Of a stretch of DNA of 64,000 bases, positions 16,994 to 61,531 are shown in pieces. How positions within the stretch are numbered: the first letter of the stretch is position 1; each line of letters begins with the position of its first letter. The position numbers were made by a program, and so were the translations under genes. A model generated the notes under the pieces. It made no database searches. It had not been told where the DNA came from and was given only the letters and a program-made list of their open reading frames with translations. The DNA is taken from positions 1 to 64,000 of the forward strand of contig JAUXAG010000007.1 of assembly GCA_030614915.1 (NCBI GenBank). Direction: 5' to 3'. The stretch comes from Actinomycetes bacterium (GTDB taxonomy: Bacteria > Planctomycetota > Phycisphaerae > JAACET01).

Positions 16994-18487
16994 CTAATCA
17001 GCCCGGACGCAACGGGAGAGTGCCCAATCGCGGAGGGAGTCGATCTTTTCGGCCATAAATACCGACAGCGGCTGAGTTTGAGCCAGTTCGGTGAGGATGT
17101 GCTCGGTGGCCAACTCCTGATCATCGGAAAACGCGGCGTACATGGCCCCCATCACGGCCTGCTCGATCTCTGAGCCGCTAAAGCCATCCGAGGTGTCGGC
17201 CAAGGCGGCGGTGTCGAAGGCCTGCGGGTCGCGGTTGCGTCCGGCAAGGTGTATCTCAAAGATGGTCTTTCGAGTGTCGCTGTCGGGCAGGTCCACGAAG
17301 AATATTTCGTCGAATCTTCCTTTGCGGACCAACTCGGGGGGCAGGGCGGCTATATCGTTGGCGGTGGCTACGAGAAAGACGGGCTCGGGGTGGTCCTGCA
17401 TCCAGGTGAGCAGTTGTCCGAACATGCGTTTGCTGAGTCCGCCGTCGGATTCCGGGCCGGCACTGGCAGAGGCGAAGGCCTTTTCAATCTCGTCGATCCA
17501 AAGGACACAAGGAGCTAGAACCGAAGCGACCTTGAAGGCCCTTCGCAGGTGGCGTTCGCTTTCGCCGATGTATTTGTCGTAGAGGGAGCCGACGTCCATG
17601 CGGAGCAGGGGCATTTTCCACGCAGCCGCGACGAAGCGGGCCATGAGACTCTTGCCGCAGCCCTGCATGCCCAGGATGAGGATTCCGTGGGGAGCTTCGA
17701 GTCCGAAGTTGCGGGCCTTGGCGGTGAAGGCCCTGGAGCGTCGGTCGAGCCAGCGTCGCAGGTTCTTCATGCCGCCGACGGAGGGGATGGCTTGCGGGGA
17801 AGGGATGTAATCGAGCACGCCGGTCTGGTGTAGGCGCTGGCGTTTGATCTCGATGGCTTTGGTGATGTCGTCGGGACTGAGTTTGCCGTCGCCCAGGATG
17901 GCTTCAGCGACGACCTGGTAGATTTCCATGCGGGTCAGGCCTCGAAGGTTGGCCAGGAATTGGCTGAACTGAACCTCGGTCATTTCGACGACGCGGTCGG
18001 AGAACTCGGTGAGCTCCTGGAAGTTGGTCTTGACCAACTTGTAGATTTCCTGCTCGTCGGGCAGGGGCAGATCGTAGGAGACGGTCAAGGGATGAAGTGG
18101 CCAAGGCAGCTCACCGCCGGGATCGATTAGAAATATGGTGCGGTTGTCCTGGGCGAAGGTCTGGGCGACATCGCGGAGCAAGCGCTCGACGACGGCGTCT
18201 TTGATGTATCTAAGGGCATCCTTGAAGATGTAAACGTTGGTGGCCTCGTTGTTGCGGATGAACTTGAGGGCTCCGACGAGGGTCTTAGTGGCGGGGATGA
18301 TTTCCCCGGGGGTCGGCGCGGTGTGATGGAGCCCGTCGGAGACGGACCATTCGAGGACAGCGAGGCCCATTTCCAGGCCGGCCTGGTGGACCTGGCAGGC
18401 GGCGAAGGCTTCGTCAAGGGTCTGGATAGTGACAATGGCGTGACGCGTTCGGATAAGACGTTTGAGATCATCCAATAAATCAGGCAC
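16994..18487 (-). CDS. Ycf46-like AAA+ ATPase
   Basis: The 497-residue protein matches the Ycf46-like AAA group of cyanobacteria and other bacteria. An N-terminal non-ATPase region (DLKRLIRTRHAIVTIQT, LEWSVSDGLH) is followed by an AAA module with Walker A GMQGCGKS (about residue 268), a Walker B-type LWIDEIEKAF (about 330), sensor 1 VFLVATAND and the arginine-finger region PELVRKGRFDEIF. The start is GTG at 18487 with AAGGAAAC upstream rather than the longer frame to 18520. The cellular role of the family is poorly known. A fragment of a closely related gene lies at 12630-12690. Confidence 0.88.
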   Translation of the reverse strand: MPDLLDDLKRLIRTRHAIVTIQTLDEAFAACQVHQAGLEMGLAVLEWSVSDGLHHTAPTPGEIIPATKTLVGALKFIRNNEATNVYIFKDALRYIKDAVVERLLRDVAQTFAQDNRTIFLIDPGGELPWPLHPLTVSYDLPLPDEQEIYKLVKTNFQELTEFSDRVVEMTEVQFSQFLANLRGLTRMEIYQVVAEAILGDGKLSPDDITKAIEIKRQRLHQTGVLDYIPSPQAIPSVGGMKNLRRWLDRRSRAFTAKARNFGLEAPHGILILGMQGCGKSLMARFVAAAWKMPLLRMDVGSLYDKYIGESERHLRRAFKVASVLAPCVLWIDEIEKAFASASAGPESDGGLSKRMFGQLLTWMQDHPEPVFLVATANDIAALPPELVRKGRFDEIFFVDLPDSDTRKTIFEIHLAGRNRDPQAFDTAALADTSDGFSGSEIEQAVMGAMYAAFSDDQELATEHILTELAQTQPLSVFMAEKIDSLRDWALSRCVRAD

Positions 18488-18527
18488 GGCTGTTTCCTTC
18501 TGGGAGTGTGAAGCAAGCAAGGTGAGC

Positions 18528-34812: not shown

Positions 34813-35904
34813 TTATCGATCTTCCGCCAAATTAAGTCGTTGCAAAAAATCAAATTCTAATTGTTCATCCGGGGGAGAGATAGTCAGGAATTTTTTGATT
34901 TCAAGCCAAACGCTATTCAAGTCTTCTATATCCTGATCGGTATATGTGACGTAATTGACTCCATATCTCCGCCAATACTTTTTGTGTTTGTCCATTTCAC
35001 GCTCATAATTTGTCCTCGCATCATCATCGAGTTCGCTGAGTGTTTTATCCTTCCCCTTCAATTTCCCATGAGATGACCAGGGAGAGAATTCGAACCCTGT
35101 TTTACTCATGTCCCATGGGTTTATTATCAAAAAATCTAAACGATATTTGTGCGATCGCTTTAAAGGATCATATCTTAGTTCTGGGATCATTAGCGGTATA
35201 TCATTCTTGTTCTTTTGGCCTTTTACAAATTCAATATATTGATCTGCAATATTAAGTTGATAAATTGACCGTGCTCGTCTTACCATGTCTCTGAAAAAGG
35301 AAAGATAATCTGGTAAGCCAGAAAATCGTCTGATTCTATTTTCGCCCATGTAGCATAACCCTGTTTCTAGTACATGCGAAATCGTCCAATAAGGAAATTT
35401 GAAATGGCGGATATCTGATTTGTCATTTTCCCATACTTTGTCATATCTCGGTGTGACTAATAGCCCAAATTCATCATTATTATTGCCAAACCAATATTCG
35501 GACTCATCAATTTTTGGCCTTACTTTATATAACTCTTCATAATGTTTCAGAAAAGATCTCTCTAAAAACTTGTAAACATATTTTTGGAAATACGGATGAT
35601 TTCCGGTTAGCAGGTCATGCATGCGTTTATGCCTCGGGCTTGGGCATTCTTTTTGGTTTTCTTTTAAAAACCCTTTTGTCCACCGGCTTTGATATTCAAG
35701 AGGTGTCTTAATAACATCGTTATGCAAATTAAGATATTCACCAGTTTTGCTCCCAATAAAAGCATTTAATTTAGCCTGTGTATTATATTTGAGATGGATG
35801 CGTTTGATCTCACGAAAGACCTTCTCTTGCAGGAGAATCAAATCTCTTGTTAATACCTCTATTTTCTTGTTTCTAGCTGCTTTATTTGGATTCTGTTCTG
35901 CCAT
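34813..35904 (-). CDS. TrlF-associated protein, possible PD-(D/E)XK-type nuclease
   Basis: The 363-residue protein is not recognised as a named family. The N-terminal half is helical and basic (IEVLTRDLILLQEKVFREIK). The C-terminal third has HKYRLDFLIINPWDMSKTGFEF, then SPWSSHGKLKGK and VNYVTYTDQDIED, an arrangement of Asp, Glu and a following strand like a restriction-type nuclease core, though the usual Lys is Ser (EFS). The start overlaps the end of the TrlF gene by 23 bp. The DNA is AT-rich like its partner, pointing to joint transfer. A nuclease role is inference. Confidence 0.6.
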   Translation of the reverse strand: MAEQNPNKAARNKKIEVLTRDLILLQEKVFREIKRIHLKYNTQAKLNAFIGSKTGEYLNLHNDVIKTPLEYQSRWTKGFLKENQKECPSPRHKRMHDLLTGNHPYFQKYVYKFLERSFLKHYEELYKVRPKIDESEYWFGNNNDEFGLLVTPRYDKVWENDKSDIRHFKFPYWTISHVLETGLCYMGENRIRRFSGLPDYLSFFRDMVRRARSIYQLNIADQYIEFVKGQKNKNDIPLMIPELRYDPLKRSHKYRLDFLIINPWDMSKTGFEFSPWSSHGKLKGKDKTLSELDDDARTNYEREMDKHKKYWRRYGVNYVTYTDQDIEDLNSVWLEIKKFLTISPPDEQLEFDFLQRLNLAEDR

Positions 35905-38866
35905 CTTGTTCTCTATTTGTTATCATTGTTATTGAGTCTGTAGCTAATCGATTCTTTGCCCCATAGTTTAGTCTCTCTGCGTAGTACTTTTGATCTCTGT
36001 TGTCAAACGCAGGTTGAGTTCCCTCCAAAATGTCTATAAGAGCTTTATTTATTTTGGGATTTTCAATAGCACCACAAGTATATGTTATTTTGTTTCTTTC
36101 TTCTTTTTTCATCTCACAATGTATAATTTGATCCGCATCGCAGACTACCGCAAGATTAGGATTATGCGTTACAATAATAATCTGCCGTCTTTTCTTAGCT
36201 TCTTTTATACAAGGGACTAAGACTCCATATACTGTTTCGTTGTCGAGATTTTCCTCCGGTTGGTCTATAATCAATGGTATATCATCCCGCGAAATAAACA
36301 GATAAAATATTAGCAAAACAGTCCCTCTTTCTCCCGGGGACAATTGGCTTAAGTCCTTGCCAGCCCAACGTAGAATATACTTGGGTTTTAAGTAATCGAG
36401 TGAATATATATAATTATAAAAATCCTGAATTTGGATACTTTGCCTCAGCTGGTCATTAATATAACGAACGGTGTCTCTAAATTCATTTCTTTGATCGACG
36501 TTAAGATTGGCCTCTAATTGCTGCAGGAATTTTTCTAATCCTGGACTACTATCAAAATCCGAACTATCTAATATATCTTTGAGTCTTTTTTGACCGTCGT
36601 CAGCCCCGTAAAAGGACCCTTTTTTGTTTTGAGTAATAAAATTAAAGAATTGCTCGGGGAATCCGCTACATATTATGGAAACCCTAAAATCCATGGAAAA
36701 TCGTTCTTTCGAAAATTTTTGCGAATCAGCAAAGTCTTTGACACGCTTATACAGCGTGCTATATTCATCTCTCAATTGACATAGCTGGCCGAATATTTCT
36801 TTTATCTTTGAAAGCCGTTTTTCTCTTAGTACGCGTAGTTGTTCTGGAATATCATCGATTTCTTTGATTTGTTTTTCGTAGTATTTGATTGTATCAGGCA
36901 TTGAATCGTCGCCATCAATCGCCTTGGCCTTTATTTCCCATTCAGCTTTTTCTTTGAGGTACGCTTGATATTCTTTATTTGGTTGATCGAGCTCATTTCG
37001 CAGAGCGTCAATCTCTTTCTGCAATTGCTGTTTCTTGAAAAACGGGCCATCTTTATTATCTTCTTTGAGAGTACCAGATTTGGTTACATAGCTAGCCCAG
37101 GACTCCGTATTTATTTTTTCAATAGCATCCCTTTTAATTTCTAATTTAATAACGTCATCAATGTTAAGGCCCAATACACCTACAATTGCTTTACATTCAC
37201 TCTTAAATAATTCATATTGTTTTTGAAAGTTATCGAGTTTGTCTGAAAGTTTTCTTGCATTTACGGATTTATTATAATCGATCTTTATTTCCTTCTCTAT
37301 TCTCTCGATTTCCTTCTCATATGCCTGAATACCTTCAACTTTTTTATAAATTTTAGCCGTGATAGCATCGATTTCTTTCTGTTTGGCAGGATCTGTCCCC
37401 GGTTTTGTTCTTTCTTTTGGTTTTATTAAATCATGGGAAGCTCTTTCCTGTTTCTTTATTTGTAATCTGTTATTGATTTGTGTTTTATAATCAGGGTGTA
37501 GTTTACCTTCCAATATAGCGATCTCTTTATTGAGCGTCGTGATTTCGTTTTTAGCAATATCGATAGAACTGTTCATTTCTTTCGTTTTGAATTCTATTAA
37601 ATCATCTAACTTATTGAAATTCAATTTCTCGGTATCGCTGACATGAGAGAAAATGACTTTCTTTAATTCATCATTAAATAGACTTCCTTCAAGTTGTTCT
37701 GTGCATATTTTTTCAAGATAATTTTGAGGGATGCATTTAACAGTTTCAACATCACTGCCTTCAATATCATCGTTAAGATTTTTTTCAGAAGAATTGCCAC
37801 TTTCCCATTTCAATAAAGCTTTAAAGTGTTTTGCTTTATTATCTTTTTTATCTCTAAACTTGGTGGGATTTAAAAATGAAAAATGGCTGCTCTGTTGTGT
37901 GTTGCCTAGCAAACCTAATGTATCAGCTATAGAACTTTTCCCGCTTCCTTTGTTGCCTATGATCGATATTAAACCCGGATTTAAAATAACTTCGGGATTT
38001 TCGCTAAACCATATTTCATCGAGGGTGACTTCCTCTTCTTTGTTTATCGCAAATGAATGAATGTGTTTCGTTTTATTGTTTCTAACTCTTCTTAATATAT
38101 CAGGTTCATCACCGATAAATACTCTATCCTCAGGTTCAATTATTATCTGCTTCAATCCTTCAAATGTTTGGTCGGCTTTAATCCATGTAAATCGTGCATT
38201 TTCATATTCACTTATTTTATGATTGTCTGAGCAGCAGACGGTTGGCAATCTAAAGCCAATAGAAGGAAAAACAATAGTGTTATAATCGTTCTGGTCCTCC
38301 GGCTTGCTAATTTCAAGTATATCTATAAAATCAGTAACCAAATCAGTTTTAACTTGGTCTTTAAATTTCGCCAGATTACTTCTTATATTCTCAATAGTAT
38401 TGCTTTTGCTTCCGGCATGGACAGCCACCAGGCCACCTAAATCATGTATAACTTTTGCCGACTCTTTTAAATCGCAATATATCTTATTTTCGCCTTTATC
38501 GTGTTTGTCTTGTTCTGTGATCTTTTGGGCCGCAGAAAATTTAGTCCATATATCCTGCAACTGTGCTTTATTAAGATCATTTGGAAAAATCCCAGTAAAA
38601 TGGACAGATTCACTTCCTCCGAGTTCCGAACGACATTCTATTGCCGGAAATATTGCTATGTCTGTGGCCGCAATACTCTGAAGATTTATAATTCTATTAA
38701 CGTCAATTGTATGGTGATCGGTTATAGCTATGGCAGCGATATTTGAATCTTTCAATTTTTGTATTATCGCTTCATTTGTTATTGATTTGTCTTGGTAATC
38801 CTCAGAGGCGGGTGTATGAAGATGCAAATCCCATTTTCGCCAAACTGAACCTCTCGGGTCATTCAT
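35882..38866 (-). CDS. TrlF-family PHP-SMC-like ATPase
   Basis: The 994-residue protein fuses an N-terminal PHP phosphoesterase domain to a RecF/SMC-like ABC ATPase. PHP metal motifs are visible: KWDLHLHTPAS (12-22), AIAITDHHTID (about 45), FPAIECRSE, VAVHAGSKS and CCSDNHK. The ATPase has Walker A GNKGSGKSS (about 305), two long coiled-coil stretches (about 415-720), the signature LSPGERGTVLLIF (about 850), Walker B LIIDQPEENLDN and VTHNPNLA. The family is found in mobile and defence contexts; its substrate is uncertain. GC content is much lower than in the left half of the window. The downstream gene overlaps by 23 bp. Confidence 0.88.
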   Translation of the reverse strand: MNDPRGSVWRKWDLHLHTPASEDYQDKSITNEAIIQKLKDSNIAAIAITDHHTIDVNRIINLQSIAATDIAIFPAIECRSELGGSESVHFTGIFPNDLNKAQLQDIWTKFSAAQKITEQDKHDKGENKIYCDLKESAKVIHDLGGLVAVHAGSKSNTIENIRSNLAKFKDQVKTDLVTDFIDILEISKPEDQNDYNTIVFPSIGFRLPTVCCSDNHKISEYENARFTWIKADQTFEGLKQIIIEPEDRVFIGDEPDILRRVRNNKTKHIHSFAINKEEEVTLDEIWFSENPEVILNPGLISIIGNKGSGKSSIADTLGLLGNTQQSSHFSFLNPTKFRDKKDNKAKHFKALLKWESGNSSEKNLNDDIEGSDVETVKCIPQNYLEKICTEQLEGSLFNDELKKVIFSHVSDTEKLNFNKLDDLIEFKTKEMNSSIDIAKNEITTLNKEIAILEGKLHPDYKTQINNRLQIKKQERASHDLIKPKERTKPGTDPAKQKEIDAITAKIYKKVEGIQAYEKEIERIEKEIKIDYNKSVNARKLSDKLDNFQKQYELFKSECKAIVGVLGLNIDDVIKLEIKRDAIEKINTESWASYVTKSGTLKEDNKDGPFFKKQQLQKEIDALRNELDQPNKEYQAYLKEKAEWEIKAKAIDGDDSMPDTIKYYEKQIKEIDDIPEQLRVLREKRLSKIKEIFGQLCQLRDEYSTLYKRVKDFADSQKFSKERFSMDFRVSIICSGFPEQFFNFITQNKKGSFYGADDGQKRLKDILDSSDFDSSPGLEKFLQQLEANLNVDQRNEFRDTVRYINDQLRQSIQIQDFYNYIYSLDYLKPKYILRWAGKDLSQLSPGERGTVLLIFYLFISRDDIPLIIDQPEENLDNETVYGVLVPCIKEAKKRRQIIIVTHNPNLAVVCDADQIIHCEMKKEERNKITYTCGAIENPKINKALIDILEGTQPAFDNRDQKYYAERLNYGAKNRLATDSITMITNREQDGRTESK

Positions 38867-39076: not shown

Positions 39077-39292
39077 CTTGCGCACGCCGCAAAATCTCGC
39101 CATTCCGTGAATCTGTAACGTCTTGTTGCCGCTGTCCTTACAATCATCTCTACGTTCAAGCCTTCCATTTTCACTGTTTTCCACAAGGTTTATAAACTGA
39201 GCCGTTCAACGCTAGATATCCGTGCGTAACAATTTACATGCAAAGCACTTACGCTTGGGATGCTTTGCCAGAAACGTTCAGAGTTCATACCA
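39053..39292. repeat. Inverted 17-bp repeat flanking about 205 bp before the recombinase gene
   Basis: TGGTATGAAGTCTGAAC (39053-39069) and GTTCAGAGTTCATACCA (39276-39292) are inverse copies with one mismatch. The first arm overlaps the 3' part of the terminator-like hairpin; the second lies 44 bp before the recombinase start. Recombination-site arms are a possible explanation. No gene is seen in 38867-39335 otherwise. Confidence 0.55.
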
Positions 39293-39335
39293 ACTGCGAA
39301 CTTTTCTGAAAAAGTTACGCAAGGGGGTATTGAAA

Positions 39336-39965
39336 ATGGCTGGGCTAAATTGGGTCTTGGACAGGAGCAAGTTCCTCTCTCTAGCTGAGGCAAGGCAGCT
39401 TCTGGACACAGCGAGAGAATTGGCTGAGACAGCCTCTCTCTATGGCCACAGGACCCCGGTACGAGACTACTTCATCATACATTTGGCTCTGGCTACAGGG
39501 CTGAGGGTCATGGAAATAGCAGAGTTGAATTGTGGGGATCTTTTCATAGATGAATTCTACACCGCTCTCATCGTCAGGAGGGGGAAGGGTGGCAAGAAGA
39601 GGCCGGTCTGGTTTGGTACGGAATTTAAGCAGCACTACGAAAACTACCTGGATTGGAAACAGGCTAACGACGAACCAGTTGGCCCAGATGATCCGCTGTT
39701 TTTATCCAGCAATACAGGGAAGCACATGACAACTCGAGCCATTGAAAAAGCCTTCAAGAGAGTAGCTGCCAGAGCAGGTCTGCCAGAACATTTCTCCATA
39801 CACAGCCTCAGACACACATACGCATGCCAGCTATATAGGGCCAGTGGCTACAATCTCCGCCTAGTTCAAAAGCAGCTGGGACATTCAAGATCGCAAACCA
39901 CAGAAGTTTATGCAGACGTAATGATGCCGGAAATCAAAAAAGCGTTGGATAGAATGTATAGGTGA
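39336..39965 (+). CDS. Tyrosine recombinase, catalytic domain only
   Basis: The 209-residue protein has all tyrosine recombinase catalytic positions: Arg in ATGLRVMEIAEL, Lys in RRGKGGKKRP, HSLRHTYACQLY (HxxR), LGHSRSQTTEVYADV (His and nucleophile Tyr). It lacks the N-terminal SAM-like core-binding domain of normal XerC/D-type integrases, so it is a short form like integron-type or phage accessory recombinases. The start ATG has AGGGGG 8 bases upstream, which excludes the longer frame to 39222. A PEP-CTERM protein gene follows after 28 bp. Confidence 0.88.
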   Translation: MAGLNWVLDRSKFLSLAEARQLLDTARELAETASLYGHRTPVRDYFIIHLALATGLRVMEIAELNCGDLFIDEFYTALIVRRGKGGKKRPVWFGTEFKQHYENYLDWKQANDEPVGPDDPLFLSSNTGKHMTTRAIEKAFKRVAARAGLPEHFSIHSLRHTYACQLYRASGYNLRLVQKQLGHSRSQTTEVYADVMMPEIKKALDRMYR

Positions 39966-42178: not shown

Positions 42179-43285
42179 ATGCTAAAGAGAGACCCCTACA
42201 GCCACGCTGACCGGTGGGAGAAGTGGAGAGAAGAAAATCAAAATGGGATAAAAGGAATTTCCAAACATAACTCTGATTTAGCACTATCGTTCCTATTTGA
42301 CATGGAAATTGGTAAGAATATTTCTCCTAGATCTAAAAAAGGTGAGAGAAGTTTTACTCGACTTAACGATCTTAGGGGGAAAATCTTATTCTTTGCAGAA
42401 AGACTCACAAAAGATTTAGATAAGATTACCAAAGACGAAATTCATGACTTCTTTCACGAGATGAGAAAATCTAAAATCCTTCGAAAAGATGGAAAGCCTT
42501 TTTTATCTGTTGGTGACTTTGTCAGAGATTTCAAAGCCTTCTGGGGCTGGCTTAGACGAACAGCCAGGGTCGACGAGGATATTACAATGGACCTTCGAAG
42601 AAGTGATGGACGTAAACCTGCATGGGTCTTTTTGACTGAAGAGGAATTCAAAACCTTAGCCAATCAAGCTAATTCTGATTACCGTGCTCTGATGTGGTTC
42701 ATGTATGACACTGGCATGAGGGTCACAGAAGCGTATTCAATTAGAATCAGTGATTTCTCAAATGACTTTACACGGTTGGCAATTCGAAAAGAGTATTCAA
42801 AGACATTTGGTAGAACAATAAATCTCAAGCTTTGTTCAAACTTTATCAGAGAGCTTGTAAAACACCATAATCTAGGCCCGAATGATTTCATCTTTATCAA
42901 AAAACCTGCTACCTTCAATAAATATCTCCGAACCCTAGCAGCCAAAACATTTGGTGATGGGGAATCTCCCGCCCGTAAACCATATAACAAAATGAGGCTC
43001 TACGATATTAGACATAACGCAAGTTGTTATTGGCTTAAGAGATATCCAACTCGGCAGGGTCTCATGTATCGGATGGGTTGGTCGCGAGAAAAAATGGTAA
43101 TGTACTACTCTGAATTCCTTGGCTTAGCAGATCAAATTGACGATGATGATATGGTTACAAAAGAGAATAAGACAAAATATGAAAAAAGAATTGAAATCTT
43201 AGAGCGGGGAAAGGAAGAAACAAATGAGTTGATAAAAGAATTGATGAGAAAAGTTTTAGCATTGCAATCTATCTTGGCAAATTGA
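42179..43285 (+). CDS. Archaeal-type tyrosine recombinase/integrase
   Basis: The 368-residue protein has an N-terminal core-binding domain (about 40-150) and a catalytic domain with Arg in DTGMRVTEAYSIRISDF (about 185), LYDIRHNASCYWLKRYP (the HxxR box in the degenerate form seen in archaeal integrases) and the C-terminal Tyr in MGWSREKMVMYYSEF. A Lys/Glu-rich coiled coil ends the protein (about 330-365). Overall style and lysine-rich composition match integrases of archaeal mobile elements more than bacterial XerC/D. It is AT-rich. It probably marks the left part of the element that carries the ubiquitin-like cassette. Confidence 0.82.
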   Translation: MLKRDPYSHADRWEKWREENQNGIKGISKHNSDLALSFLFDMEIGKNISPRSKKGERSFTRLNDLRGKILFFAERLTKDLDKITKDEIHDFFHEMRKSKILRKDGKPFLSVGDFVRDFKAFWGWLRRTARVDEDITMDLRRSDGRKPAWVFLTEEEFKTLANQANSDYRALMWFMYDTGMRVTEAYSIRISDFSNDFTRLAIRKEYSKTFGRTINLKLCSNFIRELVKHHNLGPNDFIFIKKPATFNKYLRTLAAKTFGDGESPARKPYNKMRLYDIRHNASCYWLKRYPTRQGLMYRMGWSREKMVMYYSEFLGLADQIDDDDMVTKENKTKYEKRIEILERGKEETNELIKELMRKVLALQSILAN

Positions 43286-49424: not shown

Positions 49425-50114
49425 ATGGCTTGGAGACCAACACAACATCTTATTGAGGGTGAACTTGACAATACTATGCCTCGAACAATCGTAGGTTGGA
49501 TGAAATTTGCTGGCATGAAAAAAACCGTGAAATTTGATTTGCAAGGAGATTTTCATCGGGACATCCGTGGAGCAAAGATTCATCTCACAGGCCCGGGAGA
49601 TGAAAGTAATCCCAGGGCAGCAGCTTATATGCAAGGTTTTGCTGAGTTTCAGACCGGTTCAGCAGGAGACATCACAGCTGGCTTGCCACCATATGACTAT
49701 GTCAAAGGATATTGCTATATTGAATGGTACGGCCAGGCAAATGGCCGAGTCGTAATCGAACTTGACTCAGATCAGGTTGAGATAATTGGCCAGCCAATTC
49801 CAGCTTGTGAGTCTGACCCTATTTCCCGGGTCGAGCAGAACCGCAAAATGGCCCAGTTTCTGACAGGTCTAAGCGAGAAAATGCAGGTTCCGGCTGTTCT
49901 TGTACAGACAGGCACAAAACCAATCTCAGATCCCGCTTTTAGCCACTGGGTTATTGTACATGGCCAAATAGTCGGTGAGGCTCGTTCAGTTAAAGATGCT
50001 GGTAATGGCCAAAGCTTTGCCTATGTCAGGCTTTTCAACATGCCTGAAATGGCTGAATATGGCTACATGGATTCAGTAAGACTGCAATTCAAAAACAGCC
50101 CTTCAAAAAACTAG
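49425..50114 (+). CDS. First protein of the ubiquitin-like cassette, unknown function
   Basis: The 229-residue protein opens MAWRPTQHLIEGELDNTMPR. The beta-rich first half (GWMKFAGMKKTVKFDLQGDF, RGAKIHLTG, YVKGYCYIEWYGQANGRVVI, about 25-125) is followed by a helix and a second beta-rich part ending QFKNSPSKN. No catalytic motif or family is recognised. The start at 49425 is fixed by AAAGGAG 8 bases upstream. It is the first of seven plus-strand genes that each have a strong ribosome site and end in the E1 gene, so it probably works in the conjugation pathway as target, adaptor or accessory. Confidence 0.7.
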   Translation: MAWRPTQHLIEGELDNTMPRTIVGWMKFAGMKKTVKFDLQGDFHRDIRGAKIHLTGPGDESNPRAAAYMQGFAEFQTGSAGDITAGLPPYDYVKGYCYIEWYGQANGRVVIELDSDQVEIIGQPIPACESDPISRVEQNRKMAQFLTGLSEKMQVPAVLVQTGTKPISDPAFSHWVIVHGQIVGEARSVKDAGNGQSFAYVRLFNMPEMAEYGYMDSVRLQFKNSPSKN

Positions 50115-50170
50115 CCACTTCGTCTCGTTTATCCCCCCAACATCCTGTTTCAAGCGAAAGGACCTGAATT

Positions 50171-50551
50171 ATGGAAGCATTTTGTCAAAACCCCTATTGT
50201 GAGAGCCCAAGTTTCAAGGAAGTCCCTGTCTCTGTGAAAAAGCCGTCTGATCAAGTACGGGCATTGTGTGCCCCTTGCGAAGAAGCTTATACCTGGGGCG
50301 TACAGCACGGTCGAAAAACCACCGAAGCAAGAAAGCTTTGGATCCTGGCTGTGGCAGACCGAGGCATAATAGCCGATGTCCGGGCCTATTGCAGTAAAGT
50401 TGACGCTGAAAAAGGTTTGATTAAGTATCTTCGCAAGTACCAGAGTTACAACGGCGACGATAATGTGCAAGTTGCCTACCAATGGCTGTGTGAACATGAT
50501 GAGTATCTCGGTGTAGATATTGTCCAGCAAAAGCACCTCAGCGTTTCATGA
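50171..50551 (+). CDS. Zinc-ribbon-like protein of the ubiquitin-like cassette
   Basis: The 126-residue protein has cysteines at 5 and 10 (FCQNPYCES) and 33 and 36 (LCAPCEEAY), a likely zinc-binding quartet. A helical C-terminal part follows (ARKLWILAVADRG, AEKGLIKYLRKYQSY). AAAGGA precedes the ATG. It is transcribed with the cassette, 56 bp after the first gene. It could be a small adaptor or substrate-binding factor; this is inference. Confidence 0.65.
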   Translation: MEAFCQNPYCESPSFKEVPVSVKKPSDQVRALCAPCEEAYTWGVQHGRKTTEARKLWILAVADRGIIADVRAYCSKVDAEKGLIKYLRKYQSYNGDDNVQVAYQWLCEHDEYLGVDIVQQKHLSVS

Positions 50552-50614
50552 ATTAGCCAACAAAACATCTTTCCACAATAAATTTTTCCCCACCCTAATA
50601 TGAAAGGAGCACTT

Positions 50615-50686
50615 ATGTTTTTCAATGGAACCAGTGCGCGCGGACCTCCGCAAGGTGAACCGGTTTACTATTCTGTTCTTGTTTGA
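50615..50686 (+). CDS. 23-residue micropeptide in the ubiquitin-like cassette
   Basis: A complete micro-ORF with the best ribosome site of the region (AAAGGAG, 7 bases before ATG) encodes MFFNGTSARGPPQGEP and ends PVYYSVLV. It sits between the zinc-ribbon gene and the Ubl gene (gap to Ubl 42 bp), and the next gene has its own ribosome site, so it is not just a leader of the Ubl. It could be a conjugation substrate, an inhibitor or a translational-coupling peptide. Confidence rests on the ribosome site and position only. Confidence 0.45.
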   Translation: MFFNGTSARGPPQGEPVYYSVLV

Positions 50687-50728
50687 CGTTCAAATTTGCT
50701 CACGTTTTCAAAATGAAAGGAAATTACT

Positions 50729-50950
50729 ATGAAGATTTTGTTCATAAACAATGAAGGCGGTGGTTTTGCCGACTATGTCAATCTTGATGGAGGTACCACA
50801 GTTGAGAAGTTTTTCAGCGAAAAAATGGCTCACGGCAAAGCTGAAGACTACCTCATCCGTGTGAATCGCCAACCTGTGTCTCGCGACTATGTTTTACACG
50901 AAGGCGATCGCGTGACTATTACGCCAACTAAAATCGAGGGTGCCGAATAA
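50729..50950 (+). CDS. Ubiquitin-like beta-grasp protein (Ubl)
   Basis: The 73-residue protein has the beta-grasp pattern of ThiS/MoaD/ubiquitin: strand MKILFINNEGGG, helix VEKFFSEKMAHG, then YLIRVNRQPVSRDYVLHEGDRVTITPT. It ends KIEGAE, so the conserved Gly is followed by two residues and there is no terminal GG. The JAMM protease of the same operon could trim it to expose Gly before adenylation by the E1. AAAGGA precedes the ATG. The presence of E1, E2 and JAMM genes downstream argues for conjugation rather than sulfur transfer. Confidence 0.8.
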   Translation: MKILFINNEGGGFADYVNLDGGTTVEKFFSEKMAHGKAEDYLIRVNRQPVSRDYVLHEGDRVTITPTKIEGAE

Positions 50951-51036
50951 CTCGGCAAACCACATCTTGAGCAAGGGGCATCTGTCATCCAACAATTGGC
51001 AGGTGCCCTTTGCTATTTTAGGAAAGGAAAAAACCC

Positions 51037-52077
51037 ATGAGTTTATCAAAACAAAAGCTGGTTCAAATCAGTCAAGCAATTCGAGAACAGCTCCAAAAGC
51101 TAAACGTGTATCGCTATGGAGAACTTCAAAAGACATTCCAAATGCTGATGGAAAACCTGGATCAGTTGCAGACCATCCAGAGGAAATTGGGAATTTGTAC
51201 TGCTCACAACTGGACGGCTGCAGGAGGCAAACTAATCAACAATTTGGCTGGAATACTGAGGGATTTTCCATCTGCTGTTGCGACAGTTGAGTGGGCTATT
51301 GGCCCCTGTCAAATCAAAGCACCTTGCCTGCGAGATGTGCTGGCAGAGCTTCAACAGACCCAGCAGGAGCTTGGCCGCTTACGGTATGACTCTGAGCACC
51401 AGATTCTGGCTGTAACTACTGAGGCTATTAAATTGGAGGGTCTCTACTTCGGTGAGTTCGAGATACAGCTGCATATCCCCAGTCTGGCAGAGATGCGTTA
51501 CAACAGTTTGTATTCCATCGTAGCCCTGGATCCCCATCCGGCAGGAAGCAATCAATGTGTAACCCACCCTCATGTAAGCGATGAAAAGCTTTGTGCGGGC
51601 GATGCCGCGGCAGCTATTCAACAAGCCTTGGCCAATGGCCGGATTTGTGATTTTTTCCAGCTTGTTCACTCAGTGCTCACAACTTACAACCCTGCCTCGC
51701 CATTTGTGAAACTGGAGGAATGGGATGGCATTCCTTGCTATGACTGCGGTTACACCATGTCCAGCGATGACAGCTATTTCTGTCAAGGCTGCGAGAATAC
51801 CTACTGCGAGGAATGTATTTCCTCCTGCCGGCACTGTGAAGACTTCTATTGTTTTAGCTGTCTGGCAGACTGCCGGGTCTGTGGAGACTCAGTTTGTGGT
51901 GCCTGCGTGAAAGATTGTCCGGATTGTGGAGAAGGGTTGTGCCACAGCTGTGTAGAAGATAATCAGTGTCCCTGTGTTGAAGAAACGGAGGATGAAAATG
52001 AATCAGAAGAAAACGCAACAATCAACGAGAAAGAACAAGTCCGACAACCAGCAGAATCAGGAACAGAAGCGGCGTGA
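51037..52077 (+). CDS. E2-like conjugating enzyme fused to a RING-like CxxC zinc array
   Basis: The 346-residue protein has an N-terminal coiled region (1-125), a UBC-like domain (about 125-225) and a cysteine array (234-313). The E2 hallmark is [18 protein letters not shown] at 177-179 and the likely thioester Cys at 186, spaced as in HPN...C of E2 enzymes. The array has nine CxxC pairs (234/237, 249/252, 257/260, 264/267, 272/275, 279/282, 287/290, 294/297, 302/305) plus 311/313, enough for about five zinc sites, like RING or binuclear treble-clef fingers. The acidic tail ([11 protein letters not shown]) ends the protein. The last 80 bp overlap the JAMM gene. Confidence 0.8.
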
Positions 52078-52783
52078 GTTTGTCCAACCATCAGAACCGG
52101 TCCTGCGGTTCCTGCCGACGGCCTGGGCTAAGCTGTTATATTTCCGTGACCGAGGCCAAACTGAGATCGGAGGCTTCGGAATTACCAAAACAGATGACTT
52201 GCTTTACGTAGAGGACTTTGTCACGGTGAAACAGGCAGCCACGGGAGCCAGTATCAGTTTTGATGATGAGGCTGTGGCTGATCTCTTCGACAGCCAGGTA
52301 GATGCCGGAAGAAAGCCAGAGCAGTTCGCCAGGATTTGGCTACACTCACATCCTGGAAATTCGCCCCAGCCGAGCTCAATAGACGAAGAAACATTCCGGC
52401 GTGTCTTCGGCAATTGCCAGTGGGCAGTGATGTTTGTCCTCGCTCTAGGTGGTAAGAGCTATGCAAGGCTCAGGTTCAATGTGGGGCCTGGCGGCCCACT
52501 GATTGTTCCCGTGGTGGTTGATTACACTCAGTCCTTTGGCCCAAGTGATTACGAAGCATGGGAGGCTGAATACCAGGCTAATATCAAGCATACCAGCTGG
52601 TCTAAAACCTTTGGCAGTCAAATAGAGCCGGGATTTGAGGAAAATGTTTCCAACTACTCTGTGCCAGATGATTGGCTCGAAGAACTTGAGGCCATGGAAC
52701 CTAGTGAGAGACAGTGCATCCTCGATGAATTAGCTGACAGACCTGATCTATGGAGTGAAAGTGAGGTGATTTGTGAATACTAG
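51998..52783 (+). CDS. JAB/JAMM metalloprotease (Ubl-processing or deconjugating)
   Basis: The 261-residue protein has the complete JAMM zinc centre: Glu56 in TEIGGFG, then H116 and H118 in LHSHPG, and Ser126 and Asp129 in PSSIDE (HxHPx6Sx2D). Residues 1-35 are a Gln/Lys-rich linker and the C-terminal 100 residues are acidic. In related systems such proteins cut Ubl C-terminal extensions or isopeptide bonds. The ATG at 51998 has GGAGG 6 bases upstream, giving an 80-bp overlap with the E2-RING gene; the longer GTG frame from 51974 is less likely. The E1 gene overlaps its end by 11 bp. Confidence 0.92.
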
Positions 52784-53432
52784 TAAAAGATATAGTAGAC
52801 AACGCGATATCGTGCCGGCGGAAAGGATAGCAGCCTGTAGAGTTACAGTCATTGGCGTAGGAGCAATTGGCCGGCAGGTTGCACTTCAACTGGCAGCTAT
52901 GGGTATTTCCTGGCTACAACTCATAGATTTTGATGTTATTGAAGAAAGCAACCTGGCTAGCCAGGGCTATCTTGAAGATGATCTTGGAAAGCCCAAAGTT
53001 GCGGCCACTGCAGAACTGTGCAAGCGCATAAATTCTGGTTTAGAAATCCAGCAGGTCAATGACCGCTTCCGCAGGAGCATGGAAATCGGCAATGCTGTCT
53101 TCTGCTGCGTAGATTCCATTGATATTCGCAAGCTGATCTGGGAGGCTGTCAAGGGTCGGGTTAGTTTCTATGCAGATGGCCGGATGAGTGCTGAGGTGCT
53201 TCGTGTTCTTACTGTCTGTGATTCAGCCAGTCGGGACTACTACCCTACCACACTGTTCTCAGCAGAACAGGCTTACCAAAGCACATGCACAGCCAAGACA
53301 ACCATCTACTGCGCAAATATCGCAGCAGGTCTGATGTTGGCACAGTTCAGCAAGTGGCTGCGGGGCCTGCCTGTTGATTCCGACCTGAGCCTCAATTTCC
53401 TGGCCTCAGAGATTGCTGTATTTTCTCCCTGA
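52773..53432 (+). CDS. E1-like ThiF/UBA activating enzyme
   Basis: The 219-residue protein shows RYSRQ at 6-10, the nucleotide loop [14 protein letters not shown] (24-37; GxGxxG), [15 protein letters not shown] (50-64), K73 and K75 in GKPKVAA, and CCVDSID (111-117). [20 protein letters not shown] (170-189) contains the likely catalytic Cys172, with Cys180 as alternative. It would adenylate the Ubl and pass it to the E2. It is shorter than full ThiF/MoeB proteins and lacks their zinc cysteines. The start is GTG, overlapping the JAMM gene by 11 bp. A terminator at 53473-53521 ends the operon. Confidence 0.9.
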
Positions 53433-53472
53433 GCTTCTGTCGTGAGTTTGGTGAGGGCATCAGTAGGCGACT

Positions 53473-53521
53473 ACGAGCCGGTTCTTTACCTGAATATTGG
53501 TGATTGGGCCGGCTCGTTTTT
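53473..53521 (+). terminator. Rho-independent terminator of the ubiquitin-like cassette
   Basis: ACGAGCCGG (53473-53481) pairs perfectly with CCGGCTCGT (53509-53517), followed by a T-run (53517-53521), 40 bp after the E1 stop. Confidence 0.8.
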
Positions 53522-54214: not shown

Positions 54215-54889
54215 TCACTGTCGAGTTATTAATTTTATTCGATTGCACAGTTCTTCTGCCGTCTCCATCGGAGTGGGGCTCTGTACAATCGTACGTCCGA
54301 CAATAAGGTAGTCAGCACCAGCTTCTATTGCGTCTATAGCATCTCCGCCTTGAGTTCCAATCCCGCAGGAAAAAATTGGAAACTTAGGTCCTACAAGTGA
54401 ACGGGCTTCTTTTATTGTATTCAGATTAGTGCCAGGGGCTTGGATTGCATGAGCACCTGATTGAATCGCTGTAGCGACGAAATCGGCTAAGGCATCGTGG
54501 AAAGGCCTCGCGGATGGTTCAGTTAACTCGGTAAGAACAACAATAGCAAAATTCTTGTCCAGAGAAGCACAAGCACTTAGAACCGATGGACCACAGTGTC
54601 CCCAGACGGTAACTCCATCGGCGCCAAGGTCTAACAATCGCCTACAAAATAATGTCGCGATGTGCTCAACATCATGAATTTTGCCATCAACTAGGATTGG
54701 GATATCCAAGTATTTCCGAAGAAGTTCTATACTCCTGTAGCCATGATCAGGGTCCGAAAGCAACACATGCCCGATCTTTATACCTGCCAGCAGGTCCTCC
54801 AACGTTTCAATTAGTCGAAGACAATTATCTAATGACAAAAAATCTGCGGCCAAAAAAATGCCCGGTTTCGATCTCTCAAAAAGTCGCAT
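54215..54889 (-). CDS. OMP-decarboxylase-fold protein, short form
   Basis: The 224-residue protein has an OMPDC/KGPDC-like TIM barrel: GIFLAADFLSLDNC, IKIGHVLL, then IPILVDGKIHDVEHIA with the family's DxKxxD catalytic array, GVTVWGHCGPSVL, TELTEPS and GADYLIVGRTIVQSP (phosphate loop). The start ATG at 54889 has AAGGGA upstream, 13 bp after the other OMPDC gene. It resembles the short class of OMP decarboxylases, but two such genes in tandem suggest that one acts on a different substrate. It is the last gene of the MerR-controlled operon. Confidence 0.8.
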   Translation of the reverse strand: MRLFERSKPGIFLAADFLSLDNCLRLIETLEDLLAGIKIGHVLLSDPDHGYRSIELLRKYLDIPILVDGKIHDVEHIATLFCRRLLDLGADGVTVWGHCGPSVLSACASLDKNFAIVVLTELTEPSARPFHDALADFVATAIQSGAHAIQAPGTNLNTIKEARSLVGPKFPIFSCGIGTQGGDAIDAIEAGADYLIVGRTIVQSPTPMETAEELCNRIKLITRQ

Positions 54890-54902
54890 TAATGTTCCCT
54901 TG

Positions 54903-55871
54903 TCACAAAGCACCGATGGCAGAGTTTACATCCTTTCGCATTTTTATAACAGCCTTTCTGATATGTTCTGTGAAGGGCACGCCGGAGATTTCTTTACCTT
55001 CGGCATTACGGAAAGCATAAGTAATCTGTCTCGAAGAGCTTACTATCGCTCCTTTTTTAGCAGCGTTAAAACATGGCGCGATATCCTTACCTTTAGCACC
55101 TTGTGCACCATATCCTGGAAGCAGGAAGATTGCATTCGGCATGAGCTTGCGCAATTGTGCTGCTACAGACGGAAACGTAGCTCCAACAACTGCCCCAACA
55201 TTCGAGAAACCAGACTTTCCAATAGATTTCTCTCCCCAACTGTCCACGAGCTCAGCCACACGCTCATAAACAGTCATACCCTGGAAGGGGTCTGCAAGGA
55301 TCAAATCTTGAATTTCTCTCGAGGACGGATTGGATGTTTTGACTAATATAAACACACCTTTCCCATATTCAGAAGCCCTTTCAATGAATGGTTTGATACC
55401 GTCATAACCAAGGTATGCATTTATCGTAATAGCATCAACGCCTAGGCCTTGCGACTTACTCGTAATTCTACTGCTAGGACAACCTAAGTGTCCAAGTGCG
55501 TACGCGGCTGCCGTGGTACCTATATCATTCCGTTTGGCATCTTCAATGACAATCAGTCCTTTCCTGTGTGCATAAGCTACGGTGTTCATAAAGGCTTTTA
55601 TGCCAGCAGCGCCATAGGCTTCGTAAAACGCTATTTGTGGTTTTACTACAGGTACAAGGTCGAAAACAACGTCTATCACTGCCTTGTTAAAAGCCTCAAA
55701 GGCATTTGCTATTGCGCTATTTGTCTTGCGTACTTTCTGGAACGCTTTTTTCACTATGCTATTTGGTAGCAACTCTAGGCGAGGATCCAAGCCTACACAA
55801 ATTGGGCTGCCTTTGGTGTTGATCGCATCTAACAGTCTGTCAGAAAAATTGTCCATTATTCTGAGATCCAT
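54903..55871 (-). CDS. pyrF: Orotidine-5'-phosphate decarboxylase, long (type 2) form
   Basis: The 322-residue protein matches the type 2 OMPDC: SPICVGLDPRLELLP (21-35), VPVVKPQIAFYEAYGAAG (73-90), VIEDAKRNDIGTTAAAYA with the catalytic Lys/Asp (DAKRNDI, about 111-117), AITINAYLGYDGIKPF, FILVKTSNPS, AVVGATFP and FLLPGYGAQG. It decarboxylates OMP to UMP. It is encoded 34 bp after the SAHH-like fusion gene within the accessory operon, so it is probably not the housekeeping copy. Confidence 0.9.
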   Translation of the reverse strand: MDLRIMDNFSDRLLDAINTKGSPICVGLDPRLELLPNSIVKKAFQKVRKTNSAIANAFEAFNKAVIDVVFDLVPVVKPQIAFYEAYGAAGIKAFMNTVAYAHRKGLIVIEDAKRNDIGTTAAAYALGHLGCPSSRITSKSQGLGVDAITINAYLGYDGIKPFIERASEYGKGVFILVKTSNPSSREIQDLILADPFQGMTVYERVAELVDSWGEKSIGKSGFSNVGAVVGATFPSVAAQLRKLMPNAIFLLPGYGAQGAKGKDIAPCFNAAKKGAIVSSSRQITYAFRNAEGKEISGVPFTEHIRKAVIKMRKDVNSAIGAL

Positions 55872-59566: not shown

Positions 59567-61531
59567 TTGAACATCGAAAAAATCGCCCGAAAACTCAGGC
59601 CCCTAATGCCAAATCAGGTGCAGCATTGGATGCAGACAAGAGAGTTAGCTGACCCTGAACTGAAGGAATTAATTGAAAAGCAAATCATTTCTACTGCGTA
59701 CCGCCATCTGGGTGATTTTCACAGCAAAATCCTGCTGTCGCTTCCGCCTGAAAAGAAGGCTAAAGGGTCGATTGACCTTGGGAATATTCTCTATGAAAAG
59801 GACAAATGGCCTTTCGGAATCTCAACTGATGAACTAATGCAGAACATGGCTGTGCTTGGCAGGTCAGGAGCAGGCAAGACCAATGTGGCATTTCATATAC
59901 TTCAGCAGCTCGTGGCTAAGAAAATACCTTTTGTTTTCCTTGATTGGAAACGTACTGTCCGTCACCTAATCCCACTGCTTAAAAGCAGGATCAATATCTA
60001 TACGCCAGGCAGGTCTTTATTGAAGTTTCCGTTTAATCCCTTTGTTGTTCCTCCTGGTGTTGAAGCCAATGTTTATGTCAACCAGGTTGTGGACATCATG
60101 TCTGAAGCTTTCAGCCTGGGTGAAGGCTCACGAAGTATTCTGCGAAAAGCCATTGCCAAGCTCTACAATCACGGAAAGCTCTGCCCGACAGTTAAGGAAA
60201 TAATATCAGAAGTTGAACAAATGCCTGATAAAGGCCGAGTGGGCGGCTGGAAAATTACCGCAATGCGGGCACTTGAGAGCATGGAGTTCTCAAATATTGC
60301 AACTGATGACAGAATATCACAGGAGCAGCTTGCTTCAAAACTCCTGTATGAAAATACAGTTATTGAACTTGATGCCCTGGCTCAGGAGAGCAAGAAGTTT
60401 CTGGTGCCGTTGTTGTGCCTTTGGCTTTATTATGTCAGATTAAATTCAACAGACCGTGAGAAGCTGAAACTGGTTATCTTTATTGAAGAAGCTCATCATG
60501 TTCTGCATCGCCGTGACCACGTAGCAAAGGAAACTATTTTGGAAATGCTGTTTCGGCAGTGCCGCGAATTGGGGATTGGCATTATTGTTCTCGACCAACA
60601 TCCCCACCTTCTTTCAGCTGCTGCTTTGGGTAACACATATACAACAATCTGCCTGAATCAAAAAGACCCAACTGATATAAATAAGGCTGCAGCTCTTTCG
60701 TTAGTTGACAGCGAGGAAAAGAAGTATTTCAGTATGCTTCCAGTCGGGCAAGGCATTGTGAAACTTCAGGATCGCTGGACTAGACCGTTTCTTGTTCAGT
60801 TCCCGCTGGTGGATGTGAAGAAAGGAGCAGTCACAGATGATGTTCTCGCAAGGTATTTCGCTGTAACTCGCGGAAAAAGAACAGGCTCAGGGCGGAATAC
60901 CCGGCTATCTGGCCTCGTGCTTCGTGATTTCCAGCAGGTTCCACGGGTTCCATTGTATGATAACGCTCTGAATGAAGACGCATTTGCGTTCTTAGCAGAT
61001 GTTTTGAAACATCCTGATGATGGCGTAAAGGAGAGATACAAGAAACTAGGTCTAAGCATAGGGACAGGCAACAGACTGAAAGGGCAGCTTCTGGATCAAG
61101 GCTGGCTGGAGACTCAGGTAGTTGAACTTGGCAAGACAAGAAAGGTTCTTCTGAGACTGGCAAAAGCAGGGAAGCAGGCTCTTGGTCTGGATGCTAAAAC
61201 ACCTGAGCGTGCTTCATTAGTGCATGAGTATTGGAAAAGATTTTATGCCCAGCGATTTAGGGAAAAGGGCTATAAAGTGCGTCTTGAAGCTCCACGAATA
61301 TCTGGAACAATCGATGTTCTGGCAGTAAAGGACGGCGAGAGTGTAGCTGTGGAAATCGAGACAGGCAAATCTGATATTGCCAGAAATGTGAAACAGGATT
61401 TGCTGTCTGGGTTTGGTAAGGTATTGATTGTGGCTACTGATGAAAAGGCCTTGGGGATTGTAGAGCAGAAGCTGGCTAAGGAAGGGTTGGTGGGGGTTGG
61501 GCGGGTTGTGGTTGTGTTGAGGAGAGAGTGA
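59567..61531 (+). CDS. HerA/DUF87-type ATPase with C-terminal nuclease-like domain
   Basis: The 654-residue protein has an N-terminal helical part (1-75), a HerA/VirB4-like ATPase with Walker A VLGRSGAGKT (96-105) and Walker B LVIFIEEAHHVLH (about 303-315), FRQCRELGIGIIVLDQHP (sensor region), then a winged-helix-like section (about 465-545). The C-terminal domain has GTIDVLAVKDGESVAVEIET with GKS following (D...ExE...K), a restriction-fold nuclease pattern common in archaeal plasmid proteins. The start is TTG with no clear ribosome site; an in-frame ATG lies about 13 codons on. A role in DNA transfer or processing for the mobile element is likely. Confidence 0.82.
   Translation: MNIEKIARKLRPLMPNQVQHWMQTRELADPELKELIEKQIISTAYRHLGDFHSKILLSLPPEKKAKGSIDLGNILYEKDKWPFGISTDELMQNMAVLGRSGAGKTNVAFHILQQLVAKKIPFVFLDWKRTVRHLIPLLKSRINIYTPGRSLLKFPFNPFVVPPGVEANVYVNQVVDIMSEAFSLGEGSRSILRKAIAKLYNHGKLCPTVKEIISEVEQMPDKGRVGGWKITAMRALESMEFSNIATDDRISQEQLASKLLYENTVIELDALAQESKKFLVPLLCLWLYYVRLNSTDREKLKLVIFIEEAHHVLHRRDHVAKETILEMLFRQCRELGIGIIVLDQHPHLLSAAALGNTYTTICLNQKDPTDINKAAALSLVDSEEKKYFSMLPVGQGIVKLQDRWTRPFLVQFPLVDVKKGAVTDDVLARYFAVTRGKRTGSGRNTRLSGLVLRDFQQVPRVPLYDNALNEDAFAFLADVLKHPDDGVKERYKKLGLSIGTGNRLKGQLLDQGWLETQVVELGKTRKVLLRLAKAGKQALGLDAKTPERASLVHEYWKRFYAQRFREKGYKVRLEAPRISGTIDVLAVKDGESVAVEIETGKSDIARNVKQDLLSGFGKVLIVATDEKALGIVEQKLAKEGLVGVGRVVVVLRRE

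What the first reader, a model, noticed from the sequence alone, without database searches (positions are those of the whole stretch)
49425..53521. Complete ubiquitin-like conjugation cassette with an E2-RING-like fusion
One plus-strand operon encodes a beta-grasp Ubl, an E2-like protein with HPH...C (Cys186), a JAMM protease with the full zinc motif and an E1-like enzyme with GxGxxG and Cys172, ending at a clear terminator. Bacterial Bil and Bub systems and archaeal Ub operons are known. Here the E2 is fused to a 20-cysteine array of nine CxxC pairs, so conjugation and E3-like functions may be in one chain. Three further upstream genes (unknown beta-rich protein, zinc ribbon, micropeptide) share the same ribosome-site style and are not part of the named systems I know. 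It sits on an archaeal-flavoured mobile element.
Basis: partly seen in the sequence, partly recalled or inferred. Interest (0 to 1): 0.92.

Follow-up and report, generated by a model that had tools for sequence, protein, structure and literature searches.

The report
Ubiquitin-like conjugation cassette with E2-zinc fusion
A bacterium of the phylum Planctomycetota carries a compact four-gene kit that very probably attaches a small ubiquitin-like protein to other proteins, with the conjugating enzyme fused to a zinc-finger array; the same kit recurs across the phylum and in large phages, and in one subgroup a tiny upstream peptide with a ribosome-stalling motif precedes it.

Summary
Ubl (50729-50950), E2-zinc fusion (51037-52077), JAB (51998-52783) and E1 (52773-53432) form one operon ending at a strong terminator. 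Of 87 homologous Ubl loci with enough downstream sequence, 80 have all three partners nearby or nearly so and 76 keep the same order; nearly all are Planctomycetota. E2 HPH and Cys186, E1 Cys172 and the JAMM residues are near-invariant. An AlphaFold model shows a UBC-like domain with E2s as top structural matches (not formally significant). The zinc part is an all-cysteine FYVE/RING-like array, not a canonical RING; E3 activity and conjugation itself are untested. The archaeal reading is not supported. The 'micropeptide' is a short upstream ORF with A-R-[G/S]-P-P, a known RAPP-type arrest motif, found in 17 of 105 leaders against 4 of 6036 control windows. About 30 viral contigs also carry the cassette, about half of them with a terminase gene, and viral and bacterial E1s intermix in a tree. 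Ubl-JAB-E1-E2 operons are long known, and RING-containing ones in Planctomycetes were noted in a 2011 paper I could not read, so this is a new variant of a known kind.

The parts
50615..50686 (+). uORF, 23 aa MFFNGTSARGPPQGEPVYYSVLV; arrest-type motif A-R-G-P-P at 50636-50650
   Evidence: Short ORF with an AAAGGAG ribosome site; about 20 other loci have a 13-34 aa uORF with AR[SG]PP about 75-134 nt upstream of the Ubl start; codons vary synonymously
50729..50950 (+). Ubl, 73 aa beta-grasp (ThiS/MoaD-like), ending ...TPTKIEG-AE
   Evidence: ThiS 20.7 bits, just below cut-off; G71 107/107 and A72 101/107 conserved in 108 homologues
51037..52077 (+). E2-zinc array fusion, 346 aa: helical hairpin 5-88, UBC-like domain 98-215, zinc array 234-313
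   Evidence: AF2 pLDDT 87.7; Foldseek ranks 1-2 are E2s, and FYVE/RING-like zinc domains also appear; HPH and C186 conserved
51328..51681 (+). UBC-like domain with HPH (177-179) and predicted catalytic Cys186
   Evidence: one viral homologue has HPN in the same place
51736..51975 (+). all-Cys zinc array: nine CxxC pairs plus CxC
   Evidence: Cys positions; profile matches to B-box and FYVE domains; CARP2 FYVE-type domain 1y02, rmsd 0.9 over 45 columns
51998..52783 (+). JAB/JAMM metalloprotease (predicted processing or deconjugating enzyme), overlapping the E2 3' end
   Evidence: Prok-JAB 22.4 bits, below cut-off 25; JAMM residues unchanged in all non-gapped homologues
52773..53432 (+). E1-like ThiF-fold adenylating enzyme, 219 aa, without the CxxC zinc site of MoeB/ThiF; Cys172
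   Evidence: ThiF 88.3 bits, over cut-off; Cys172 91/92; comparison with own-genome MoeB/ThiF-like proteins
53473..53521 (+). intrinsic terminator
   Evidence: -37.5 kcal/mol, z -8.2, no shuffle as stable
49425..50114 (+). accessory gene G1, conserved beta-rich N-terminal domain (relatives end in DUF2958)
   Evidence: found in 11 other loci; start set by homologues beginning MAWRP; DUF2958 in a relative; AF2 model of the N-terminal part
50171..50551 (+). accessory gene G2, 126 aa, Cys pairs at the N-terminus
   Evidence: 5 other loci; homologues in L073 and L106 lack the N-terminal Cys pairs

Best explanation
A mobile, self-contained ubiquitin-like conjugation cassette. The E1 adenylates the C-terminal Gly71 of the Ubl, probably after the JAB removes the residues beyond it, and takes it on Cys172. 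It passes to Cys186 of the E2, whose fused zinc array acts in cis as an E3-like or substrate-recruiting module. The Ubl ends up on target proteins and the JAB can remove it. In the window's subgroup, translation of the Ubl gene is probably controlled by an upstream arrest-type leader peptide. Shown here: gene set, order, invariant catalytic residues, UBC-like predicted fold, Cys array, leader-motif enrichment, spread through Planctomycetota and phages. Inferred: every chemical step, the E3-like role, the processing site, translational control. Biological role: most likely phage or mobile-element versus host conflict, on the grounds of distribution only.
For: Co-occurrence: of 87 Ubl loci with room, E2 in 83, JAB in 81, E1 in 80, and 76 in the order Ubl-E2-JAB-E1 (the 87 include 5 viral loci and about 4 contigs counted twice). 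Catalytic residues near-invariant over about 100 homologues, E1 Cys172 included. UBC order of elements at high confidence, with E2s 3we5 and 2z5d as ranks 1 and 2. An HPN variant in a viral E2 matches the eukaryotic motif. Genes overlap or lie close together and share one terminator. Patchy distribution and several copies per genome, up to five. 30 viral contigs carry all four genes. Leader motif 17/105 against 4/6036 in control windows, with synonymous codon changes.
Against: No conjugate, thioester or cleavage has been shown. Foldseek matches are not significant by E-value (best 0.019) and Pfam finds no E2 family. The Ubl has a single C-terminal Gly (EG-A), not the usual GG. The E1 is a minimal ThiF-like enzyme without a UFD-like domain, so how it would hand the Ubl to the E2 is unknown. 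Not every homologue keeps the full zinc array, and the array lacks the His of canonical RINGs. The leader motif was noticed and tested on the same loci, and no significant RNA structure was found in the leader. A role in phage-host conflict is not tested.
Confidence: 0.75

Rival explanations
1. Sulfur-carrier or cofactor pathway: the Ubl is a ThiS/MoaD-like sulfur carrier activated by the ThiF-like E1, with the JAB as a processing protease; the 'E2' is a structural partner.
For: The Ubl is closest to ThiS and the E1 to ThiF/MoeB models; JAB-Ubl pairs are known from sulfur metabolism (own knowledge).
Against: An E2-like domain with invariant HPH and Cys is present beside it in 83 of 87 loci; the Ubl lacks the GG terminus of sulfur carriers; the genome has other, strong ThiF-family genes that could serve cofactor synthesis.
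Confidence: 0.12
2. The cassette conjugates the Ubl, but the zinc array is not an E3-like module: it is a substrate, nucleic-acid or membrane adaptor, and discharge is E3-independent or uses another protein.
For: Best zinc-domain structural match is a FYVE-type domain, and profile hits are to B-box and FYVE domains; cysteine number after the catalytic Cys varies from 3 to 48 in viral members.
Against: FYVE, B-box and RING domains are related folds; RBR E3 domains also appear among the matches. Neither side was tested.
Confidence: 0.35
3. Decaying element: a former phage cassette kept by chance, without present function.
For: Cassettes occur on phage contigs; the window cassette lies in a region with integrases and a TrlF-family gene.
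Against: All four genes are intact here, and catalytic residues are kept across about 100 diverged loci.
Confidence: 0.06

Closest known systems
Iyer et al. 2006 type 6d operons (PRTRC-like): Ubl, JAB, E1-like, E2-like
   Same: Same four activities in one operon (PMC1779556). A related set lies in the cultured Flavobacterium phage FpV4.
   Different: By that paper the 6d E2 lacks the His before the Cys; here HPH is invariant and the E2 bears a zinc array. No PRTRC model is met: only the E1 hits TIGR03736, 29.3 bits against a cut-off of 144.75.
Planctomycete RING-containing Ub operons of Burroughs et al. 2011
   Same: Planctomycetes are named as carriers of operons related to the archaeal Ub-E1-E2-RING-Rpn11 one (PMC4197634).
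   Different: The 2011 paper was not held, so I could not check whether this exact E2-zinc fusion is described there. It may be.
Archaeal Ub operon of Caldiarchaeum subterraneum
   Same: Ub, E1, E2, RING and JAMM/Rpn11 in one operon (PMC5654768).
   Different: There Ub has a C-terminal GG and the RING is a separate small protein; here a single Gly and a fused array.
Bil and CBASS type II systems
   Same: Bacterial E1, E2 and JAB acting on a Ubl or Ubl-like tail.
   Different: BilA has two Ubl domains and BilD two adenylation domains (PMC11354881). No BilA, BilB or BilC model is met; the E1 matches BilD only weakly (7.6e-6). No CD-NTase in the operon.
RAPP-type arrest-peptide leaders (ApdA, ApdP, ApcA, SecM)
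   Same: RxPP-type motif in a small ORF just upstream of the regulated gene; RGPP, present in the window, supports the most robust arrest and is the most under-represented tetrapeptide in ten bacterial groups (PMC12992588).
   Different: Only 13-34 aa, without a localization signal, upstream of a ubiquitin-like gene; that paper does not contain the word ubiquitin. Arrest is not shown here.

Membership tests
E2 / UBC fold | UBC fold with HPx motif and catalytic Cys | tested here: met
   Model, Foldseek ranks 1-2 (best E 0.019), HPH and C186 conserved; no Pfam E2 model is met
E2 / UBC fold | thioester with the Ubl on the Cys | not testable with these tools
   needs purified proteins
Canonical RING finger | C3HC4-type zinc ligands | tested here: not met
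   All-Cys array, no His in ligand positions
RING-type E3 | E3 ligase activity | not testable with these tools
   needs an assay
Type 6d / PRTRC | E2 lacking His before Cys; PRTRC family models | tested here: not met
   His present; PRTRC_ThiF far below cut-off, no PRTRC A, B or C hit
Bil | Tandem-Ubl BilA; two-domain E1 BilD | tested here: not met
   Single-domain Ubl of 73 aa, single-domain E1 of 219 aa; PADLOC
CBASS type II | CD-NTase in the operon | tested here: not met
   None among the genes of the operon
Burroughs 2011 planctomycete RING operons | Same E2-RING gene architecture | tested here: inconclusive
   Paper not held; only a review cites it
RAPP-type arrest peptide | RxPP motif in a uORF upstream of the regulated gene | tested here: met
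RAPP-type arrest peptide | N-terminal localization signal, as in most described members | tested here: not met
   peptides of 13-34 aa without one
RAPP-type arrest peptide | ribosome arrest at the motif | not testable with these tools
   needs in vitro translation

The most novel reading that the evidence does not exclude
Large tailed phages and Planctomycetota share, and exchange, one family of complete Ubl-conjugation cassettes built on an E2-zinc array fusion with a single-Gly Ubl, and one bacterial subgroup regulates it by an RxPP ribosome-arrest leader: a ubiquitin-like weapon or counter-weapon in phage-host conflict.
Probability: 0.4. Interest if true: 0.88.

Novelty: new variant of a known kind. 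Interest (0 to 1): 0.72.

Why it matters
Complete E1-E2-Ubl-JAB sets in bacteria bear on how ubiquitin signalling arose. An E2 with an E3-like zinc module in the same chain would be a minimal cascade that can be tested in E. coli. The same cassettes on large phages would make protein conjugation part of phage-host conflict from the phage side, and a RAPP-type leader would link it to the state of translation.

Tried and rejected
Archaeal setting: rejected, homologues and kin genomes are Planctomycetota. Conserved RNA attenuator in the leader: no stable structure, z between -0.75 and 1.02 in six leaders; no Rfam family near the operon. Accessory genes G1 and G2 as core parts: rejected, few loci have them. 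G1 fold: N-terminal part well modelled, but no significant structural match, weak OB-like hits only. Plasmid record carrying the E2: none found. Annotated phage records carrying the Ubl: none. Leader motif upstream of viral Ubl genes: none in 31. Other copies of the leader DNA motif in the own genome: 8 matches, no more than the reversed-pattern control, so uninformative. Direct repeats marking element ends in 38800-64000: none. tRNA genes in the window: none. The E1 catalytic Cys was assigned by conservation and motif; the automatic alignment with MoeB/ThiF misplaced that column.
Full report
The operon. Reading, the four core genes are Ubl 50729-50950, E2 fusion 51037-52077, JAB 51998-52783 and E1 52773-53432, followed by a strong terminator. 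The JAB start at 51998 has a GGAGG ahead of it and overlaps the E2 end. Family searches found ThiF in the E1 over its cut-off, Prok-JAB and ThiS just below theirs, and nothing for the E2.

Homologues. A search of 392 genomes of the phylum found the E2 in 17, with up to five copies in one genome. A Ubl-profile scan of genome contigs found 115 relatives, 80 kept; those listed are Planctomycetota apart from one Emcibacter-labelled MAG and a few records titled only 'bacterium'. Among 87 Ubl loci with enough downstream sequence, 83 have the E2, 81 the JAB and 80 the E1; 76 keep the order Ubl-E2-JAB-E1. These 87 include five viral loci and about four contigs that came in twice, by two searches.

Catalytic residues. 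Over about 100 homologues: E2 Cys186 in 103 of 103 non-gapped, His177 102 of 104, E1 Cys172 91 of 92, JAB Glu, His, His, Ser and Asp in all non-gapped, Ubl Gly71 107 of 107 and Ala72 101 of 107. The Ubl thus ends EG-A with a variable tail, not GG, which suggests trimming at Gly71; that is inference.

E2 structure. The AlphaFold model (18-sequence alignment) has pLDDT 87.7, with a UBC order of elements at 98-215. Foldseek against the PDB puts E2 enzymes at ranks 1 and 2, probability 0.96 and 0.82, though the best E-value is 0.019; a CARP2 FYVE-type domain matches at rmsd 0.9 over 45 columns and RBR E3 domains appear lower down. Sequence profiles point to B-box, FYVE and RING domains. The array has 20 cysteines in nine CxxC pairs plus CxC, with no His ligand, so it is FYVE/RING-like rather than a canonical RING. 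A viral homologue with HPN in place of HPH matches the eukaryotic motif.

Leader. An explicit scan found such uORFs with a ribosome site in 17 of 105 upstream windows against 4 of 6036 random control windows, about 20 in all with looser criteria. The motif was noticed on the same loci, so the test is not independent of its discovery. Codons differ at third positions while the peptide stays, which points to selection on the peptide. RGPP, as in the window, is reported to support the most robust arrest, and to be the most under-represented tetrapeptide in ten bacterial groups; RSPP was partially permissive (PMC12992588); structures explain RAPP arrest (PMC10951233). RNA folds of six leaders are no better than shuffles. 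The leader loci are strongly clustered in the E2 tree, in two supported clades, one of which holds the window.

Phages. A first scan found five viral contigs with the cassette; a scan with an E1 alignment found 66 viral relatives, 30 of them with all four genes, some nearly identical to each other. In 28 of these records (27 with the full set), terminase searches at E <= 0.001 gave hits with phrog_2 in 9 and PF03237 in 12, together 13 records, two of them below the Pfam cut-off; the 208-kb record has a phrog_675 terminase near its cassette. In an E1 tree viral and bacterial rows intermix: six label changes, at least three forced by well-supported branches, though many forks are weak. Viral E2s carry 3 to 48 cysteines after the catalytic Cys. 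A cultured Flavobacterium phage has a related set with a different E2. I did not find phage-borne complete cassettes in the papers searched, whose reach is limited.

Accessory genes and context. In the Planctomycetia the cassette often follows an AAA ATPase gene and three smaller genes; a member of that AAA family lies at 16994-18520 of the window, 33 kb away, link untested. Upstream of the cassette lie two integrases and a TrlF-family ATPase.

Literature. Ubl-JAB-E1-E2 operons were described in 2006 (PMC1779556), and a review says Planctomycetes carry related operons, citing Burroughs et al. 2011 (PMC4197634), which I could not read. Novelty is therefore rated as a variant, with the fusion itself possibly known.

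Verdict. A conjugation cassette is by far the best reading; its chemistry, the E3-like role of the zinc array, the arrest leader and the biological role all need experiments.

Noticed in passing
L158-L190 (viral contigs): About 30 viral contigs carry the whole Ubl-E2-JAB-E1 cassette; some Ubls are tandem (221-245 aa) and some records have a second E1/E2 pair.
   Followed up: partly
window 50615-50686: uORF with a RAPP-type arrest motif, shared with about 20 loci upstream of the Ubl gene.
   Followed up: yes
window 35882-38866: TrlF-family AAA-like ATPase, 664.5 bits over its cut-off of 350, with an unidentified 363-aa gene next to it at 34813-35904.
   Followed up: partly
window 54215-55871: Two orotidine-5'-phosphate decarboxylase-like genes side by side, of two different subtypes.
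   Followed up: no
window 59567-61528: HerA/CedD-like DNA-translocating ATPase with archaeal-model hits, all below cut-off.
   Followed up: no
window 39222-39965 and 42179-43285: Two tyrosine-recombinase integrases upstream of the cassette.
   Followed up: no
L224 (phage FpV4): A cultured Flavobacterium phage with a PRTRC-like set: E1 and JAB by profile, a possible E2 and a possible Ubl by eye.
   Followed up: partly
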